Of a stretch of 64,000 bases of DNA, positions 20,348 to 61,003 are shown piece after piece. The notes beneath the pieces were generated by a model. The model saw only the letters and a list, made by a program, of their open reading frames with translations. It was not told where the DNA came from and made no database searches. The stretch is from Methanosarcinales archaeon. GTDB lineage: Archaea; Halobacteriota; Methanosarcinia; Methanosarcinales; Methanoperedenaceae. Position numbers and translations under genes: made by a program. The DNA lies in contig CAJPFJ010000058.1 of NCBI GenBank assembly GCA_905339155.1, positions 1 to 64,000 on the forward strand, read 5' to 3'. Position 1 is the stretch's first letter. Each line of letters starts with the position of its first letter.

Positions 20348-20502
20348 ATAATCGGATTATTCAGAAAGCTTAATTAATCATAATACCTTTAAAAGCAGTG
20401 TTTTCATACTTAATTTTGTATAGAAATAGGTGATGGAGTTCGCCTTTAACCGCTCTACAGCTAATAACTCCTACCAACAAATATTACGAACGGAGACAAG
20501 AT

Positions 20503-49693: not shown

Positions 49694-50254
49694 ATGAACT
49701 CAATAATCCTTACTGATCCAATAAAATACAACGGCTCCCAGATCGCCCCATTATGGGCTTACAGCATGGGAATAAAAGGCGATTCCATAGTGATGTTCCA
49801 TGGCCCTATGGATGTGACATTTGAAAACATGAAGGATCTAGAGGATGAAAAAGCAGGGAAAACCATTAAAGGCGATGACCTGATCCATTTTATTGTGGAG
49901 AGATTCAATTCACCCGCAAGTATGCGCCTTGCTTATTATATGCAGCGCCTTCTTATTGTTAGCATAAGGGATGTGCTTGGAAAACATGGAATAAAAACTA
50001 CACGCAATGGTGATGATCTTTTTGTGGATAATGGAAAACTCACTGTAAGCATAGCAAGCGCGGGTGTAACAAGTGAAAAAATCCATTGCGGGATAAATAT
50101 CACGACACAGGGAACACCTCCCGATGTCAGGACAGCCGCACTTTCTGAAATGGGGATAAAAGACTGGAAAGCAGTTGCAAAGGATATAGCGCAAACTTTT
50201 ATCCGGGAAATAGAAGATATTGAAGGCGATATCGTTAAAACAAAAAGCCTATGA
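49694..50254 (+). CDS. DUF366-family protein
   Basis: 186 residues. Family pattern: YNGSQIAPLWAYSMGIKGDS, HGPMDVTFENMKDLEDEKAG, and DLIHFIVERFN. Conserved in methanogens and some thermophiles; function not established. Confidence 0.75.
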   Translation: MNSIILTDPIKYNGSQIAPLWAYSMGIKGDSIVMFHGPMDVTFENMKDLEDEKAGKTIKGDDLIHFIVERFNSPASMRLAYYMQRLLIVSIRDVLGKHGIKTTRNGDDLFVDNGKLTVSIASAGVTSEKIHCGINITTQGTPPDVRTAALSEMGIKDWKAVAKDIAQTFIREIEDIEGDIVKTKSL

Positions 50255-55429: not shown

Positions 55430-55502
55430 AGCCCGGTAGTGTAGCGGTCAATCATGCGGGACTCTGGATCCTGCGACCAAGGTTCGAATCCTTGCCGGGC
55501 TA
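55430..55502 (+). tRNA. tRNA-Gln (CTG anticodon)
   Basis: Cloverleaf: acceptor AGCCCGG/CCGGGCT, D arm, anticodon stem CGGGA/TCCTG with loop CTCTGGA (anticodon CTG), T arm with GTTCGAATC, discriminator A, and a genomically encoded CCA at 55503-55505. Archaeal tRNA-Gln commonly begins with A1-U72 as here. Confidence 0.93.
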
Positions 55503-55560
55503 CCATACATCATTATATAGCCCGCGGGATTGTAAATAAGAAATTGGAGTTATCTTATGA

Positions 55561-55695
55561 ACAACGGACCCGGATGATATCCATGGATTTGATAGGGCAT
55601 TGGAAATGGCTCTTAAAAGACTTGACGACCCAATAGTATCACCGAACAATAAAGAACTAACACACAGATTTATATTGATGAAGTATGGCCGAACT
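55561..55695 (+). pseudogene. Remnant of a tyrosine-recombinase N-terminal (core-binding) domain
   Basis: An open frame starting right after a stop, without its own start, encodes HGFDRALEMALKRLDDP then PIVSPNNKELTHRFILMKYG. The pattern KRLxx...SxxNKELIxRFxxxK is that of the SAM-like N-domain of archaeal XerA-type integrases. It is then overrun by the LigD-polymerase gene. It lies 56 bases after tRNA-Gln, a common integration site. Assignment rests on a short match only. Confidence 0.4.
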
Positions 55696-56545
55696 AACAA
55701 AAGTATCATTCACGAATCTGGACAAGATCATCTATCCCGAGCTGGGATTGAAAAAATCCCGGGTCATCAAATACTATATCGAGATAGCTCCCCGGATGCT
55801 GGGATTCCTGAAGGACAGGGTCATAGTCATGAACAGATATCCTGATGGCGTTGACAAAGATGGATTCTATGAAAAGGATGCGCCAGCGGGTATACCTCCA
55901 TGGGTTGAAACTTTCAACCGATATTCAAAGACAGCGAGGCGGGATATCAACCATATTCTATGCAATAATCTGGATACCCTTATCTGGATGGCTAATCTTG
56001 CAACTCTTGAAATAAACACTACTCTTTCAACTATTGATAATTATGATACACCCGATCTTGTATTTTTTGATATAGATCCGGAACCTCCCTGTTCCTTTGA
56101 TGATGTCATAGATATGGCTCTTTTATTGAAAGAAAAGCTGGATGAACTCAACTTCAGGTCATATGTCAAAACTTCGGGGAAAAAGGGACTGCATGTTGTC
56201 CTGCCCGTCATTAAAAGTTATAATTTCAAACAGACAAGGGAATTCGTTCATCAATTCGGAAAGTTCATGGCAAGGGGATCTGATATTATTGTATCGGAGT
56301 TCAGGAACTCCAGGGATCCTGGAACTATCTTTATTGATTACCTGCAAAATATCCGGGGAAAGACCATGATAGCTCCTTATAGCCTGAGAGCGCAAGTCAG
56401 AGCAACAGTATCTACACCCCTTGAGTGGAAGGAACTTAAGAAAGGATTAAGACCTGAGGAGTTCAACATATTTACTGTCTTAAAAAGAAAGACTGATCCC
56501 TGGGAGGGGTTACTGGAAAATAAACAATCACTGGAAGTGAAATAA
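55685..56545 (+). CDS. ligD-pol: LigD-type primase-polymerase (end-joining polymerase)
   Basis: 286 residues. Archaeo-eukaryotic primase fold: catalytic Asp pair in VFFDIDPEPP, the ribonucleotide-binding Ser/His in TSGKKGLHVVLP, and a third Asp in FIDYLQN. It adds (ribo)nucleotides during end joining. It is a separate protein rather than a domain of one large LigD, as in Methanocella-type systems. The gene is 1 base from ku. Confidence 0.92.
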   Translation: MAELTKVSFTNLDKIIYPELGLKKSRVIKYYIEIAPRMLGFLKDRVIVMNRYPDGVDKDGFYEKDAPAGIPPWVETFNRYSKTARRDINHILCNNLDTLIWMANLATLEINTTLSTIDNYDTPDLVFFDIDPEPPCSFDDVIDMALLLKEKLDELNFRSYVKTSGKKGLHVVLPVIKSYNFKQTREFVHQFGKFMARGSDIIVSEFRNSRDPGTIFIDYLQNIRGKTMIAPYSLRAQVRATVSTPLEWKELKKGLRPEEFNIFTVLKRKTDPWEGLLENKQSLEVK

Positions 56546-56546
56546 A

Positions 56547-57359
56547 ATGGAAAATGATCAAGACACGGCCAAACCATCCAGCAGGCCCATCTGGAGCGGC
56601 AGTATCACAATAGGGCTTGTGAATGTACCGGTCAAGCTCTATATAATGATCCGGGATCAGGCATTTTCATTCAGGCTTTTACATAATGCTGATGGGCAGC
56701 CCTTGAAATATGAACGCGTCTGCATCAGGGATAATAAAGTAGTTGATTGGAAGGATACTGTAAAGGGATATGAAATAAGAAAGAATGAATTCATAGTTTT
56801 CAAGAAAGAGGAACTGGATGCCATAAGACCTGAATCAGACAGGAAGATCAGGCTCGATAAATTTATCAGTTTACTCTCCATTGACCCCGTATATTTTGAA
56901 AAGTCATATATACTGGTCCCTGACAAGAGCCTGGATGCCTATAGCCTGTTGATGGCAGTGATCCGGCAGGAGGGCAAAGCAGGAATGGGGAAGGTCACTA
57001 TGAGAACCAAGGAATATCCGGTTGTTGTTTATGAATACAGGGGTGCTTTGGTCCTGACAACCCTGCGTTATTCTAACGAGGTGATTAATCCCGGTGATAT
57101 GGAAGATCTTACAAAATTACAAAAACCTTCAGAAAAAGAGATGGAACTGGCCATAAAGATCATTAAGGAATTATCAGGGGAATTTGATATAACCGAGTAC
57201 AGGGATGGTTACAGGGAGAAAATGGAAAAGCTCATAGAAACCAAGATGAAGGGAGAGGTCATAGTTGCGGAAGTTCCCAAGAAAGAGGAAGTCAAAGAAT
57301 TGATGGTAGCCCTTCAAGAGACTATAAAACAGCTCAGCAAGTCAATCACCCACCCCTGA
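56547..57359 (+). CDS. ku: Ku homodimer end-binding protein
   Basis: 270 residues. The Ku core is clear: PIWSGSITIGLVNVPVKLYI at the N-terminus, FRLLHNADGQPLKYERVC, KGYEIRKNEFIVFKKEELDA, and a C-terminal helical tail with a Lys/Glu-rich region. It encircles DNA ends and recruits LigD. Its stop lies inside a candidate RNA hairpin that precedes iscB. Confidence 0.94.
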   Translation: MENDQDTAKPSSRPIWSGSITIGLVNVPVKLYIMIRDQAFSFRLLHNADGQPLKYERVCIRDNKVVDWKDTVKGYEIRKNEFIVFKKEELDAIRPESDRKIRLDKFISLLSIDPVYFEKSYILVPDKSLDAYSLLMAVIRQEGKAGMGKVTMRTKEYPVVVYEYRGALVLTTLRYSNEVINPGDMEDLTKLQKPSEKEMELAIKIIKELSGEFDITEYRDGYREKMEKLIETKMKGEVIVAEVPKKEEVKELMVALQETIKQLSKSITHP

Positions 57360-57600
57360 TAGGTGTGGGCATGTCCCGTGAGGGATATGGGAAACTGGTT
57401 GACAAGGAGGCATAAATTATGCAGCAGTTAGAAGAAAGAAATACATACACACCCACCGATATTCCGCACGTTAGTGGCAACTGTGATCTATCATTAAACA
57501 GAGAGGAAACTCTCAGTGTGATAGGTTTAAAAACATCTTCTAACAACTCCGATGCGGCTCTAATTGCGACAGAACACGCAAAGCAGAACACGAGTGTATC
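57346..57600 (+). ncRNA. Candidate IscB omega RNA (HEARO-like), overlapping the ku 3' end and the iscB ORF start
   Basis: Three foldable elements. (1) CCCACC/GGTGTGGG around the ku stop (57349-57369). (2) CATGTCCC-GTGA-GGGATATG (57370-57389), an 8-bp stem capped by a GNRA loop. (3) A nested hairpin: CTATCA (57488-57493)/TGATAG (57519-57524) enclosing GAGAG-GAAA-CTCTC (57501-57514), again GNRA-capped. IscB guide RNAs lie directly upstream of iscB and contain such hairpins. The third element falls within the annotated N-terminal extension of IscB, so that extension may be RNA rather than protein. Confidence 0.5.
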
Positions 57601-58879
57601 TGCTGTTTATGTTCTAAACATGAGGGGGCAACCACTCATGCCTACAACACCAGGGAAAGCAAAAAAGTTATTAAAGGAGGGAAAAGCAAAAGTAGTTAAG
57701 AGAACACCATTTACGATTCAATTAAAATATGCAACAGGCGAAGCAAAACAACCGGTAATTCTTGGAATAGATAGCGGATTCTTGCATATCGGAGTATCCG
57801 CCACAACTGAAAAGAAAGAAGTATATTCTGCAGAAGCGAACCTTCGCTCAGACATAGTAAAACTGAATTCTGAAAGAAGGCAGTATCGCAGATCAAGACG
57901 TAACCGCAAAACATGGTATAGAGCGCCAAGATTCCTTAATAGGAAAAAACCAGAAGGTTGGTTAGCGCCATCAATCCAACATAAACTTGATAGTCATATC
58001 AAGTTAATTAACAAAGTAAAAGAACTTCTTCCGATAACAAAGACCGTTATTGAGGTAGCCGCATTTGATATCCAGAAGATCAAGAATCCTGAAATATCCG
58101 GGACAGAATACCAGAACGGAGTGCAGAAAGATAGCTGGAATGCCAGAGAATATGTGCTTCATCGAGATAACCATACCTGTAAAGCATGTAAAGGGAAATC
58201 AAAAGACCCAATACTTCAAACCCATCATATTGTTTCAAGACAAATTGGTGGGGATGCTCCTGATAACCTCTTAACTTTGTGCCAGACCTGTCATGAAAAG
58301 GTCACAAAAGGCAAACTTAAATTGGATATTAAAGTACCAACAGGTTTCAAACCCGAAACTTTCATGTTAATCGTAAGATGGAAGCTGGTTAATATGTTGA
58401 GAGATGCAGGAAATATTGTAAATCACACTTATGGATATATCACAAAATTTGACAGAATCACTCTCTGCCTTGATAAATCTCACAATACTGATGCTTTTGT
58501 AATTGCAGGGGGAACTATACAAGAAAGAAGTACCTCATATTTCATAATACAACAGGTCAGGAAATGCAACCGTAAATTGTTCAAAGGCGATAGAAGCCAC
58601 ATCAAGAATACGGCTGCTCGGATCATTCATGGATTCCAGAGATTTGATAAAGTTCTCTGGAATAAGATCGAATGTTTTGTATTCGGAAGAAGAAAAACAG
58701 GTTATTTCGAATTGAGAAAACTTGATGGAACAAAAATTCATGCATCGGCTAAAGCAAAAGAACTCACTTTATTAGAAACTGCTGATACGTTGTTAATAGC
58801 GAATTTGAGGCGGGGTACGCTCCTCCACACTCTGAAAAGTGTGGTTTCCGACACCCCTGCACCCCACGGAGTTTTATGA
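57419..58879 (+). CDS. iscB: IscB RNA-guided nuclease (PLMP-RuvC-bridge helix-HNH)
   Basis: 486 residues. Order of domains: N-terminal extension 1-~60 of no known fold; PLMP domain (PLMP at 72-75, TPGKAKKLLKEGKAKVVKRT); RuvC-I D118 (ILGIDSG); arginine-rich bridge helix ~151-172; RuvC-II E212 (TVIEVAAFD); HNH at ~248-300 with zinc Cys pairs C254/C257 and C288/C291 and HH 269-270; RuvC-III D358 (SHNTDAF). All nuclease residues appear intact. The ATG has an AAGGAGG site, and the TGA overlaps the ligase ATG. IscB is the ancestor of Cas9 and nicks/cuts DNA with a guide RNA. No TnpA is present. The C-terminal ~20 residues coincide with a DNA hairpin and may be element-end sequence. Confidence 0.9.
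   Translation: MQQLEERNTYTPTDIPHVSGNCDLSLNREETLSVIGLKTSSNNSDAALIATEHAKQNTSVSAVYVLNMRGQPLMPTTPGKAKKLLKEGKAKVVKRTPFTIQLKYATGEAKQPVILGIDSGFLHIGVSATTEKKEVYSAEANLRSDIVKLNSERRQYRRSRRNRKTWYRAPRFLNRKKPEGWLAPSIQHKLDSHIKLINKVKELLPITKTVIEVAAFDIQKIKNPEISGTEYQNGVQKDSWNAREYVLHRDNHTCKACKGKSKDPILQTHHIVSRQIGGDAPDNLLTLCQTCHEKVTKGKLKLDIKVPTGFKPETFMLIVRWKLVNMLRDAGNIVNHTYGYITKFDRITLCLDKSHNTDAFVIAGGTIQERSTSYFIIQQVRKCNRKLFKGDRSHIKNTAARIIHGFQRFDKVLWNKIECFVFGRRKTGYFELRKLDGTKIHASAKAKELTLLETADTLLIANLRRGTLLHTLKSVVSDTPAPHGVL
58825..58844 (+). repeat. Hairpin near the 3' end of iscB, possible element end
   Basis: CCACACT and AGTGTGG form a 7-bp perfect stem with a CTGAAA loop. Subterminal hairpins mark the ends of IS605-type elements. 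It lies 32 bases before the ligase start. Confidence 0.4.
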
Positions 58880-60264
58880 AAGATTATAAACCAATGCTTG
58901 CCCGACTGGCAGAATCGCCATTTTCGTCCAGTGACTGGATCTTTGAAGTAAAATGGGATGGCATAAGGGCTATCAGTTATGTTAATGAAGAACTCAGTAT
59001 CAGGAGCAGAAAACAGAAGGAACTGATAGGTAATTTTCCTGAACTTTCCGAACTGAAGGATTTGACAGGGAATATAGTGCTTGATGGGGAAATAATTATT
59101 ATGAAGGATGGGAGAGCTGACTTCCAATCCCTCATCCAGAGAATGCAAAATACCAATCCGCGTGAAATAATGTATCTGGCGGGCAAATTTCCTGCAACCT
59201 ATATAATATTTGATATCCTGGAAAAGGATGGAAAGGAGGTCTCAGATATACCTCTTACGGAGAGAAAGAGGTTATTAAAAAATTCTGTAAAAGAAGGAAA
59301 TTTCGTTGTCCTGTCTTTATTTGTTGAAGAAACCGGAGAAGCTTATTATGGGGCAGCCCTGGAAAAAGGGCTTGAGGGTATTATAGCCAAAAAGAAGCAG
59401 AGTCCATACGAACCGGGAAAAAGGAGCAATAACTGGCTCAAAATTAAGCCGGTAAAGACATGTGATTGCGTCATTTTCGGTTATACGGATGGTGAAGGAA
59501 ACAGGGAGAAGACCTTTGGATCATTGATCCTTGGATTGTATGATAAAGCAGGACCGGTCTTTATTGGTAAAGTTGGTACGGGTTTTTCCCGGGAATATAT
59601 GGAAAATCTAAAGCTGTCCCTGGATAAACATAAGGTAGAGGAAGAAACACTTCCCGGGGTGGATAATGACAGGGAAATTACCTGGTTAAGACCCGATATT
59701 GTGTGTAAAATAGGTTACCAATCAATAACGGAAGACGAAAAGCTTCGTATTCCTGTGTTTAAAAGCTTGAGAGAAGATAAAGAACCCCTGGAATGTACGA
59801 TAGACCAGATAAGACCTGTTGTTTCAGATTACACGGAAAAAAGGGATTTTAGCAGGACACCTGAGCCTCAAATGTCGCATGAAAGGGGTACCGGAAAATC
59901 CTTTGTTGTACAGGAGCATCATGCCCGCAGGCTCCATTACGATCTGAGACTGGAAAAGGATGGAGTTTTAAAGAGCTGGGCCGTTCCCAAAGGTCCTCCG
60001 GAAACAAGCGGTGACCGGAGGCTTGCTGTCCAGGTAGAAGATCATCCTCTTGAATATGGTAAATTTGAAGGAGCGATCCCGCAAGGACAGTACGGGGCAG
60101 GAACGGTAAAGATATGGGATAAAGGATTTTATGAAACCATTTACTGGAAAGAGGACAAGATCGAGTTCATTGTTAAGGGAGAAAAGATGGAAGGAAGGTA
60201 TGTGCTTGTAAAATTCAAGAAAGCAGGTGAGAAGAACTGGCTATTATTCAAAGGAAGTGATTGA
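58876..60264 (+). CDS. ligD: LigD ATP-dependent ligase fused to a 3'-phosphoesterase domain
   Basis: 462 residues. Ligase catalytic Lys26 in FEVKWDGIRA; further nucleotidyltransferase motifs VLDGEIIIMK, FDILEKDG, GLEGIIAKKK and NNWLKIKP; OB-fold to ~330. Residues ~345-462 are a 3'-phosphoesterase domain (FVVQEHHARRLHYDLRLEK, SWAVPKGPP, QVEDHPLEYGKFEGAIPQGQ). The order LIG-PE differs from the PE-LIG-POL order of Pseudomonas LigD, and the polymerase is a separate gene upstream. It seals ends bound by Ku. ATG overlaps the iscB stop. Confidence 0.93.
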   Translation: MKDYKPMLARLAESPFSSSDWIFEVKWDGIRAISYVNEELSIRSRKQKELIGNFPELSELKDLTGNIVLDGEIIIMKDGRADFQSLIQRMQNTNPREIMYLAGKFPATYIIFDILEKDGKEVSDIPLTERKRLLKNSVKEGNFVVLSLFVEETGEAYYGAALEKGLEGIIAKKKQSPYEPGKRSNNWLKIKPVKTCDCVIFGYTDGEGNREKTFGSLILGLYDKAGPVFIGKVGTGFSREYMENLKLSLDKHKVEEETLPGVDNDREITWLRPDIVCKIGYQSITEDEKLRIPVFKSLREDKEPLECTIDQIRPVVSDYTEKRDFSRTPEPQMSHERGTGKSFVVQEHHARRLHYDLRLEKDGVLKSWAVPKGPPETSGDRRLAVQVEDHPLEYGKFEGAIPQGQYGAGTVKIWDKGFYETIYWKEDKIEFIVKGEKMEGRYVLVKFKKAGEKNWLLFKGSD

Positions 60265-60265
60265 T

Positions 60266-61003
60266 GTGAAAAAAATGCATATAGGCACTATTGGGTGGAG
60301 TTATGATTTCTGGAAAGGGAATTTTTATCCCGAAGGAACGCAGGAGTTGCTTGCTGAATATGCAAGGAATTTTGATACCGTTGAAATAGACAACACTTTT
60401 TATAGGATTCCTTCCAGGGATACTGTAAGAAAATGGAAGGAAGAGGTGCCTGATGATTTTAAATTTTGCGCTAAATTTCCCCGCAAAATTACACATATTA
60501 AAATGCTCCAGGATTGTAAAGAAGAGCTTGATGTCTTTATTGAACATATGTCATTGCTCGAAGATAAGCTGGGACCTTTGCTTTTGCAGTTGCCTCCCGG
60601 TTTTAAACCTGAGAAGTATGAAATATTGAAGGATTTCCTTGAAGGATTGCCACGAAGATGCCGATATGCGGTGGAAGTCAGGAATAAAAAGTGGCTTGAT
60701 GGGAAATTCTATGATATGCTCAGGGACAATGGAGTCGCACTTGCGTTGATAGACCATCCATGGATGCCTGAAATGAATACAGTAACCGCTGATTTTGTGT
60801 ATATCAGATGGATAGGGGACAGGAATAAAATCAATGGAAAACTCGGAAAATTTGAAAGAGATAGAAGCAATGAAATAAAGGATTGGGGAATGAAGATCAA
60901 CGGTTTTATTGAGGATTCTGTTGAAGTTTTTGGTTATTTCAGTAAGACTTATTCGGGTTATCCGCCGGGAGATGTGAGGATGTTGCTGGGATTTATCACT
61001 TGA
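60266..61003 (+). CDS. DUF72 protein (YecE-like)
   Basis: 245 residues from GTG (KKMHIGTIGWS); ATG at 60275 is an alternative. Family signatures: IGTIGWSYDFWKGNFYPEGT, FDTVEIDNTFYRIPS, FKFCAKFPRKITH, and the C-terminal FGYFSKTYSGYPPGD. TIM-barrel-like; function unknown, although DUF72 genes often neighbour end-joining genes. It follows the ligase stop by 1 base. Confidence 0.85.
   Translation: MKKMHIGTIGWSYDFWKGNFYPEGTQELLAEYARNFDTVEIDNTFYRIPSRDTVRKWKEEVPDDFKFCAKFPRKITHIKMLQDCKEELDVFIEHMSLLEDKLGPLLLQLPPGFKPEKYEILKDFLEGLPRRCRYAVEVRNKKWLDGKFYDMLRDNGVALALIDHPWMPEMNTVTADFVYIRWIGDRNKINGKLGKFERDRSNEIKDWGMKINGFIEDSVEVFGYFSKTYSGYPPGDVRMLLGFIT

What the first reader, a model, noticed from the sequence alone, without database searches (positions are those of the whole stretch)
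55430..61003. End-joining cassette (LigD-pol, Ku, LigD-ligase/PE, DUF72) interrupted by a complete IscB gene
Seen: ku stop, then iscB with intact PLMP, RuvC (D118, E212, D358) and HNH residues, whose TGA overlaps the ligase ATG. The genes form one apparent transcription unit. Known: IscB is an RNA-guided nuclease, and Ku/LigD seal breaks. Inference: a programmable cutter placed inside a repair operon could be a chance insertion by an OMEGA element, or could couple cleavage to end joining (homing, or tolerance of self-inflicted breaks).
Basis: partly seen in the sequence, partly recalled or inferred. Interest (0 to 1): 0.93.

Follow-up and report, generated by a model that had tools for sequence, protein, structure and literature searches.

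The report
IscB transposon docked at ligase start
A small selfish element carrying an RNA-guided DNA cutter has landed exactly between two DNA-repair genes of an archaeon, directly in front of the second gene's start codon, which looks like an accidental but gene-sparing insertion rather than a repair system with a built-in cutter.

Summary
A LigD-Pol / Ku / ligase-PE / DUF72 operon contains a full iscB between ku and the ligase gene, and the iscB stop overlaps the ligase ATG. It is a 1,535-bp OMEGA (IscB/HEARO) element at 57341-58875. Its omegaRNA (Rfam HEARO, 98.7 bits) starts inside the last codons of ku, so the predicted guide is the ku 3' end. None of 17 relatives with this ku carries iscB there; 16 keep the ku|ligase ATGA junction. 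The insertion left no duplication, gave Ku a 5-residue tail, and took the iscB stop codon from the host's ATGA. Relatives carry related elements at other sites, and iscB does not co-occur significantly with this ku operon (Fisher p = 0.26). The operon setting is best read as chance; repair coupling is not supported. A more general pattern appeared: this clade often sits directly in front of ATGA start codons (four insertions with precise empty sites), so the target-adjacent motif would be the host start codon and the guide the host's ribosome-binding region. Enrichment held in an exploratory set (52) and a second set (24), but 19 and 12 of these are not at recognisable gene starts. Cleavage and homing are inferred.

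The parts
57341..58875 (+). IscB/HEARO OMEGA element, 1,535 bp, inserted without target duplication between ...CAGCTCAGCAA and ATGAAA...
   Evidence: Left end = start of the HEARO model and shared by relatives (GTCAAT in 17 of 18 distinct left ends, window included); right end by alignment of relatives; both confirmed by empty sites.
57341..57564 (+). omegaRNA scaffold (Rfam RF02033 HEARO); its first 19 nt overlap the ku 3' end incl. stop, its 3' part overlaps the iscB ORF leader
   Evidence: 98.7 bits vs gathering 83, E=4.7e-19; first 78 nt fold z=-3.3.
57325..57340 (+). predicted natural guide (16 nt) = 3' end of ku coding sequence, TAAAACAGCTCAGCAA
   Evidence: Position directly 5' of the scaffold; HEARO nucleases are reprogrammed through this 5' spacer (PMC9755519, passage). 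15/16 match, 12/12 TAM-proximal, to the empty site of L008; 9-13 of 16 in the other 16 relatives.
58876..58881 (+). predicted TAM, host sequence ATGAAA: ligase start codon plus next codon
   Evidence: ATGA at this place in 17 of 17 relatives' junctions; ATGA directly in 7 of 9 distinct right flanks, window included.
57605..58879 (+). conserved IscB nuclease (PLMP, RuvC, RRXRR, HNH); stop TGA borrowed from host ATGA
   Evidence: Pfam PF14239/PF01844; aligns with solved IscB structures; dN/dS 0.10-0.12 against 5 relatives.
57419..57604 (+). leader ORF (62 codons) in and just 3' of the omegaRNA, preceded by AAGGAGG; in frame with iscB
   Evidence: Open in this and 18 related elements, a set chosen for being open; the other two frames are open in 0 of these 19; no codon-position-3 bias.
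58825..58875 (+). element right end: hairpin CCACACTCTGAAAAGTGTGG, then ...CCCCACGGAGTTTT with a Shine-Dalgarno-like GGAG 4 nt before the ligase ATG
   Evidence: Sequence; pattern shared by the full-length close relatives; the whole 107-nt region does not fold better than shuffles (z=-1.2).
56547..57359 (+). ku; last 5 codons (SITHP) and stop supplied by the element
   Evidence: Relatives' Ku ends at the position of residue 265; window Ku ends ...QLSKSITHP*.
55685..56545 (+). LigD primase-polymerase
   Evidence: PF21686 E=4.7e-80.
58876..60264 (+). ATP-dependent ligase + 3'-phosphoesterase (LigD parts); start codon intact
   Evidence: PF01068, PF04679, PF13298; ATG is at the same place in relatives.
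49694..50254 (+). DUF366 gene; its start codon is the EMPTY site of the related element of another species (L111, G021)
   Evidence: Joined flanks 86/120 identical across the junction, guide 14/16; PF04017 matched 1-184 of 184 from the ATG.

Best explanation
The iscB is the payload of a selfish, single-gene OMEGA element (IscB with its HEARO omegaRNA, no transposase of its own) that inserted once, by chance, exactly in front of the ATGA start codon of the ligase gene of an end-joining operon. Insertion put the element's omegaRNA scaffold directly behind the last ~16 nt of ku, which thereby became the guide; the matching target is the uninserted ku|ATGA junction, with the ligase start codon as target-adjacent motif. 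SHOWN: element ends, empty sites, intact and conserved nuclease and omegaRNA, related elements at other sites. INFERRED: IscB cuts empty alleles, and repair by copying from the occupied allele, or re-insertion, keeps or spreads the element; a Y1 (TnpA) transposase acts in trans; the ligase stays translated because the element's right end brings GGAG just before the ATG and the iscB stop overlaps it. No special working link with Ku/LigD is needed.
For: HEARO RNA at 57341-57564 beginning inside ku. Scarless empty junctions: 0 of 17 relatives have iscB there, 16 keep the ku|ligase ATGA junction. Guide 15/16 to L008's empty site. Related elements in 11 of 31 genus genomes (own included) and in MAGs of other phyla, at other sites. 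Three more exact empty sites, all at gene starts: L111/DUF366, empty in this very window, guide 14/16; L031/ATP-grasp, empties L254, L255, L257 each 16/16; the omegaRNA-only mini-element L004 before an AAA gene, empty in L270 16/16. Purifying selection on iscB equal to that among the other copies compared. Catalytic residues intact. Measured TAMs of the sister nuclease IsrB are NTGA/TTGA, NTG or NTGG (PMC9581776, passages read); the first kinds are compatible with ATGA. Four apparently intact Y1 transposases elsewhere in the genome. [quoted passage not shown]
Against: No tnpA in the element; the element's ends were not found around the genome's Y1 genes (no BLAST match; one 7-base CACGGAG in L247). 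No expression, cleavage or transposition data. The nearest own-genome copy is only 82% identical in protein, so the insertion is not demonstrably recent or active. 16 of 17 relatives' junctions match the guide at only 9-13 of 16 positions, so the guide would hit only very close relatives. The left/right hairpin similarity of the window element is unremarkable (8.5 against a mean of 9.1 for own and 6.3 for other pairs).
Confidence: 0.86

Rival explanations
1. IscB has been recruited to the end-joining operon: programmed cleavage is coupled to Ku/LigD sealing (homing by end joining, or tolerance of self-inflicted breaks).
For: Same strand, same apparent transcription unit, overlapping stop/start; nuclease under purifying selection; a non-significant excess of the ku operon among iscB-positive genomes, 8 of 11 vs 9 of 20.
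Against: Found in 1 of 18 loci with this ku (own plus 17 relatives); no Ku/LigD-Pol/ligase homologue in the fetched flanks of L029-L133 (tblastn E<=1e-3) or L002-L005; co-occurrence p=0.26; selection no different from copies elsewhere; the stop/start overlap is explained by the host's own ATGA.
Confidence: 0.05
2. A decayed passenger: the element is immobile and IscB/omegaRNA are inert.
For: No transposase in the element; own-genome copies diverged (82% and 52%).
Against: Open frame, catalytic residues and omegaRNA all intact; dN/dS 0.10-0.12 for pairs with this copy, though this averages over the whole history.
Confidence: 0.15
3. The element is a regulator of the ligase gene: IscB-omegaRNA or the inserted RNA tunes ligase translation or transcription.
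For: It sits at the start codon with its own GGAG and hairpins.
Against: Same position relative to many unrelated genes, so no ligase-specific role; nuclease catalytic residues kept, unlike the nuclease-dead regulators derived from TnpB (recalled).
Confidence: 0.05

Closest known systems
IscB OMEGA nucleases (OgeuIscB, PDB 7UTN/7XHT; OrufIscB)
   Same: PLMP, RuvC, arginine-rich, HNH layout and catalytic residues align; omegaRNA 5' of the gene with the guide at its 5' end.
   Different: This clade's right flank is mostly ATGA, whereas OrufIscB uses NTAAA and engineered OgeuIscB prefers NWRGNA (PMC13180657, passages). Its ORF opens inside the omegaRNA.
HEARO RNA and ORF (Rfam RF02033; Weinberg et al. 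2009, paper not held, recalled; PMC9755519, passages)
   Same: Same RNA family above the gathering score. I recall, unverified, that the original paper already reported integration next to ATGA or GTGA.
   Different: Here empty sites tie that motif to host start codons. I do not know whether the 2009 paper said this.
IsrB (HNH-less sister nuclease)
   Same: Measured TAMs NTGA/TTGA and NTG (one ortholog NTGG; PMC9581776, passages), i.e. a similar motif.
   Different: IsrB lacks HNH and nicks; this protein has HNH.
IS200/IS605 / ISC elements
   Same: No target duplication; hairpins at both ends.
   Different: No tnpA in the element; mobilisation in trans is inferred.

Membership tests
IscB nuclease | RRXRR/RuvC + HNH + N-terminal PLMP, homologous to solved IscB | tested here: met
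IscB nuclease | Cognate omegaRNA immediately 5' of the gene | tested here: met
   RF02033 98.7 bits at 57341-57564.
IscB nuclease | RNA-guided double-strand cleavage next to a TAM | not testable with these tools
   Residues intact only; TAM inferred from flanks.
OMEGA mobile element (IS200/IS605-type ISC) | Discrete element with precise empty sites and no target duplication | tested here: met
OMEGA mobile element (IS200/IS605-type ISC) | Linked Y1 transposase tnpA | tested here: not met
   No other + strand ORF of 90 aa or more between the ends. Y1 matches elsewhere in the genome: 6, of which 4 look intact; no BLAST match of the element's ends near five of them.
OMEGA mobile element (IS200/IS605-type ISC) | Matching hairpins at left and right ends | tested here: inconclusive
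   Summed own left/right similarity over 58 elements (one pair, L030/L112, is the same element twice) was reached by 0 of 5000 shuffles, but clade relatedness alone could cause that, and on average 31% of foreign right ends score at least as well as the own one.
Bacterial/archaeal NHEJ operon | Ku plus LigD-Pol, ligase and PE domains adjacent | tested here: met

The most novel reading that the evidence does not exclude
The ATGA clade of IscB/HEARO elements are start-codon-docking elements: the TAM is the host start codon (ATG-A), the natural guide is the host ribosome-binding stretch, and the element is built so that insertion spares translation. Its left end stops the upstream frame, its right end can replace the ribosome-binding site, and its own stop codon is read from the host's ATGA. 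OmegaRNA-only mini-elements obey the same rule, presumably served in trans.
Probability: 0.45. Interest if true: 0.72.

Novelty: new member of a known kind. Interest (0 to 1): 0.5.

Why it matters
It removes a tempting but unsupported story (a programmable cutter built into a repair operon) and replaces it with a testable rule. If IscB elements of this clade use start codons as their target-adjacent motif, their insertion sites, natural guides and empty sites can be read straight from genomes, which would explain how a cutter-bearing transposon can sit in operons without breaking them. It also gives precise natural targets for biochemical tests of what IscB does for its transposon.

Tried and rejected
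Coupling to end joining: rejected on synteny and co-occurrence. N-terminal 62 residues as a new protein domain: rejected for lack of codon-position-3 bias (close set of 8: 0.383/0.294/0.324 vs core 0.217/0.145/0.638); the frame is nevertheless open in 19 elements, a set I had chosen because it was open, so '19 of 19' is not a test; relatives with a stop in the leader exist (e.g. L122, L087, L041).

A universal start-codon rule: rejected. 19 of 52 located junctions in the first set and 12 of 24 in the second have no ORF of 50 codons from the ATG. In the close clade L115 and L033 and L034 do not sit at a recognisable gene start, and L033 and L122/L113 have the ATGA three bases off the aligned end. 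The own-genome copy on C4 (L003) and its relative L119 have ATAAAA after the right end, judged by eye, so a sister clade may follow another motif. The C35 copy (L002) lies at a gene start but its left flank does not match relatives' flanks, so it gave no empty site. A portable ribosome-binding site as a general feature: the GGAG before the host ATG is in the full-length close relatives, not in the mini-elements, so it stays an inference.

Promoter/terminator scan of the operon found no excess of promoter-like sites (15 vs 14.0 in shuffles) and slightly more terminator-like sites (7 vs mean 4.5, sd 2.1); sigma-70 type scans do not suit archaea. Paper searches bearing on start-codon docking of IscB. 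I saw listings and starts of abstracts only, the lists were capped (e.g. 25 of 75, 15 of 1,090, 25 of 35), and many hits were off topic; no listed entry stated it. Passages were read in PMC9755519, PMC13180657 and PMC9581776. The 2009 HEARO paper is not held, so a prior description there cannot be excluded.
Full report
1. What is there. The window lies on contig C58 of a 3.34-Mb, 79-contig genome. The operon reads tRNA-Gln, LigD-Pol, Ku, [iscB], ligase+3'-phosphoesterase, DUF72, all on the + strand.

2. The element. Rfam's HEARO model (the IscB omegaRNA) matches 57341-57564 end to end with 98.7 bits against a gathering score of 83. It begins inside the ku coding sequence. Aligning related elements shows a left end GTCAAT(C/T)ACC at 57341 (17 of 18 distinct left ends, window included) and a right end ...CACGGAG.. 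or close variants ending at 58875 (9 distinct right ends). Empty junctions in relatives prove the ends: L008 reads ...TTAAACAGCTCAGCAA|ATGAAACAATATAAACC, the window ...TAAAACAGCTCAGCAA|GTCAATC...GGAGTTTT|ATGAAAGATTATAAACC. So 1,535 bp were inserted with no duplication. Ku gained SITHP plus a stop from the element, and the TGA that ends iscB is the host's own ku/ligase ATGA.

3. Empty sites. Of 60 genomes searched (own included) 21 have a Ku match; besides the own genome, 17 have the operon-type ku (77-86% identical), 16 of the same genus and 1 (L022) of the same order. None of the 17 carries iscB at the junction. 16 keep the ku|ligase ATGA junction, two of them (L018, L023) with a decayed ligase; L021 has lost the ligase. 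All 17 show ATGA at the predicted TAM position. The 16-nt predicted guide matches L008's empty site at 15 of 16 positions and all 12 nearest the TAM; the other 16 match at 9-13. [quoted passage not shown]

4. Is it functional? The nuclease aligns with solved IscB chains (E down to 3e-45), its RuvC and HNH residues are present, and dN/dS over 1,200 nt of the core against five relatives is 0.10-0.12, like that among those relatives (0.08-0.14). The leader of the ORF (57419-57604) lies in or just 3' of the omegaRNA, is preceded by AAGGAGG, and shows no codon-position-3 bias, in contrast to the core. Whether it is translated is open. In one published curation, N-terminal insertions of 10 residues or more were cut by choosing a downstream start (PMC13180657, passage).

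5. Chance or coupling? Matches to this iscB occur in 11 of 31 genomes of the genus, own included and, at 64-87% identity, in MAGs assigned to several phyla (best 80 of 190 kept). Their flanks look unrelated to one another by eye. No Ku, LigD-Pol or ligase homologue was detected in the fetched flanks of loci L029-L133 (tblastn E<=1e-3) or L002-L005; genes further away were not examined. In the genus, the ku operon is present in 8 of 11 iscB-positive and 9 of 20 iscB-negative genomes (Fisher p=0.26). G024 has 21 matches to this iscB, many of them fragments, and no Ku match. Chance insertion is the plain reading.

6. Where these elements land. Nine distinct right ends (window included), chosen only by alignment through the element end, are followed directly by ATGA in 7 and by ATAATGA or ACAATGA in 2. 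Four insertions have exact empty sites, all at the start codon of a gene: the window; L111 (G021) before a DUF366 gene whose empty version is in this window at 49694 (guide 14/16; Pfam DUF366 matched from residue 1); L031 before an ATP-grasp gene (L254, L255, L257 identical over 16 nt, with AGAGGT just upstream; more distant relatives' flanks differ); and L004, a 405-bp omegaRNA-only mini-element of the same genome before an AAA-ATPase gene (L270 identical over 16 nt by count and 40 nt by eye; in the other 13 relatives printed the 16 nt match at 4-14 positions). Of the five HEARO matches in the own genome (one of them, C68, below the gathering score) four are followed by ATGA opening a long ORF with Pfam support; the fifth (C4, L003) has ATAAAA and no gene start.

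7. Survey and second set. 80 loci were scanned for HEARO; with the window this gave 79 left ends. A right end could be placed by rule for 52 after dropping 25 that could not be placed and 2 duplicates. The rule requires an ATGA, so it says nothing about ATGA frequency, and it was written on these same data; at least one placement, L042, looks wrong, and L101 has no left flank. ORF of 50 codons or more from the ATG: 33 of 52, against 28.9% of 3,900 control ATGA sites in the flanks; Shine-Dalgarno-like match in the joined left flank: 17 of 52 against 9.5%; both: 14 of 52 against 3.8%. The same right-end rule, with a regular expression for the left end (right at 74 of 79 known left ends), on 80 viral-contig loci placed 24 (30 without left end, 25 without right end, 1 duplicate): 12 of 24 vs 23.6%, 8 of 24 vs 9.2%, 5 of 24 vs 4.4% (p=0.004, 0.001, 0.004). 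One of the 24 (L239) repeats a site of the first set (L089); without it 12, 8 and 5 of 23 (p=0.003, 0.0007, 0.003). Rows are not independent (multi-copy genomes, related elements), so these p-values are too small. Of 76 plasmid records with a match I fetched 8: 1 had no annotation, and in 1 (L163) the IscB was more distant and I could not place the right end; of the other 6, 4 have an annotated CDS starting exactly at the ATGA that follows the element (L159, L160, L162, L164), L165 has an ATGA but a later annotated start, L161 has no gene there (right ends judged by eye). So start codons are favoured, not required. Selection against gene-breaking insertions could produce this without active choice.

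8. Mechanism proposed. A Y1 transposase in trans inserts the element 5' of ATGA (inferred; four intact-looking Y1 genes exist in the genome, but the element's ends were not found around them; few HEARO nucleases have a linked TnpA, PMC9755519, passage). The flank upstream becomes the guide. IscB then recognises the empty site, guide plus ATGA, and not the occupied one, because the element separates guide match from TAM. Cutting of empty copies followed by repair from an occupied copy would retain or spread it. Measured TAMs of IsrB (NTGA, TTGA, NTG; NTGG in one ortholog; PMC9581776, passages) are of a similar type.

9. Known or new. The parts are known: IscB, HEARO/omegaRNA, single-gene elements, NTGA-type TAMs. 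I recall, without having been able to read it, that the 2009 HEARO description already named ATGA/GTGA as the integration site. What I did not find in the searches named (capped listings) is the reading of that motif as the host start codon with the guide as ribosome-binding stretch; this is weak evidence of absence.

Noticed in passing
57419-57604 and relatives (L002, L030, L031, L111, L033, L044 and others): The iscB ORF opens inside its own omegaRNA, behind an AGGAGG-like stretch, and stays in frame in many relatives although the leader evolves like RNA, not protein; guide RNA and mRNA would compete for one transcript.
   Followed up: partly
L004 (G000:C6), L005 (G000:C68), L130 (G024:C52): OmegaRNA-only mini-elements of 305-405 bp with both ends but no iscB, each followed by ATGA opening a long ORF; possible guide-only parasites of IscB.
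   Followed up: partly
L003 (G000:C4), L119 (G003:C49): A 48-52% identical IscB clade in the same genus has ATAAAA, not ATGA, at its right flank (by eye), suggesting a TAM switch between sister clades.
   Followed up: no
L029, L034 (MAGs labelled Ignavibacteria): Elements 86-87% identical in protein to the window's in MAGs of another domain: recent transfer or mis-binned contigs.
   Followed up: no
L018, L021, L023: The ku-ligase operon is decaying in some relatives: ligase internally deleted, lost, or reduced to a remnant.
   Followed up: no
G000:C12:13878-14588 (L028): A second, distant Ku (30% identical) elsewhere in the same genome.
   Followed up: no
20420-20480: Fluoride riboswitch, 57.3 bits.
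   Followed up: no
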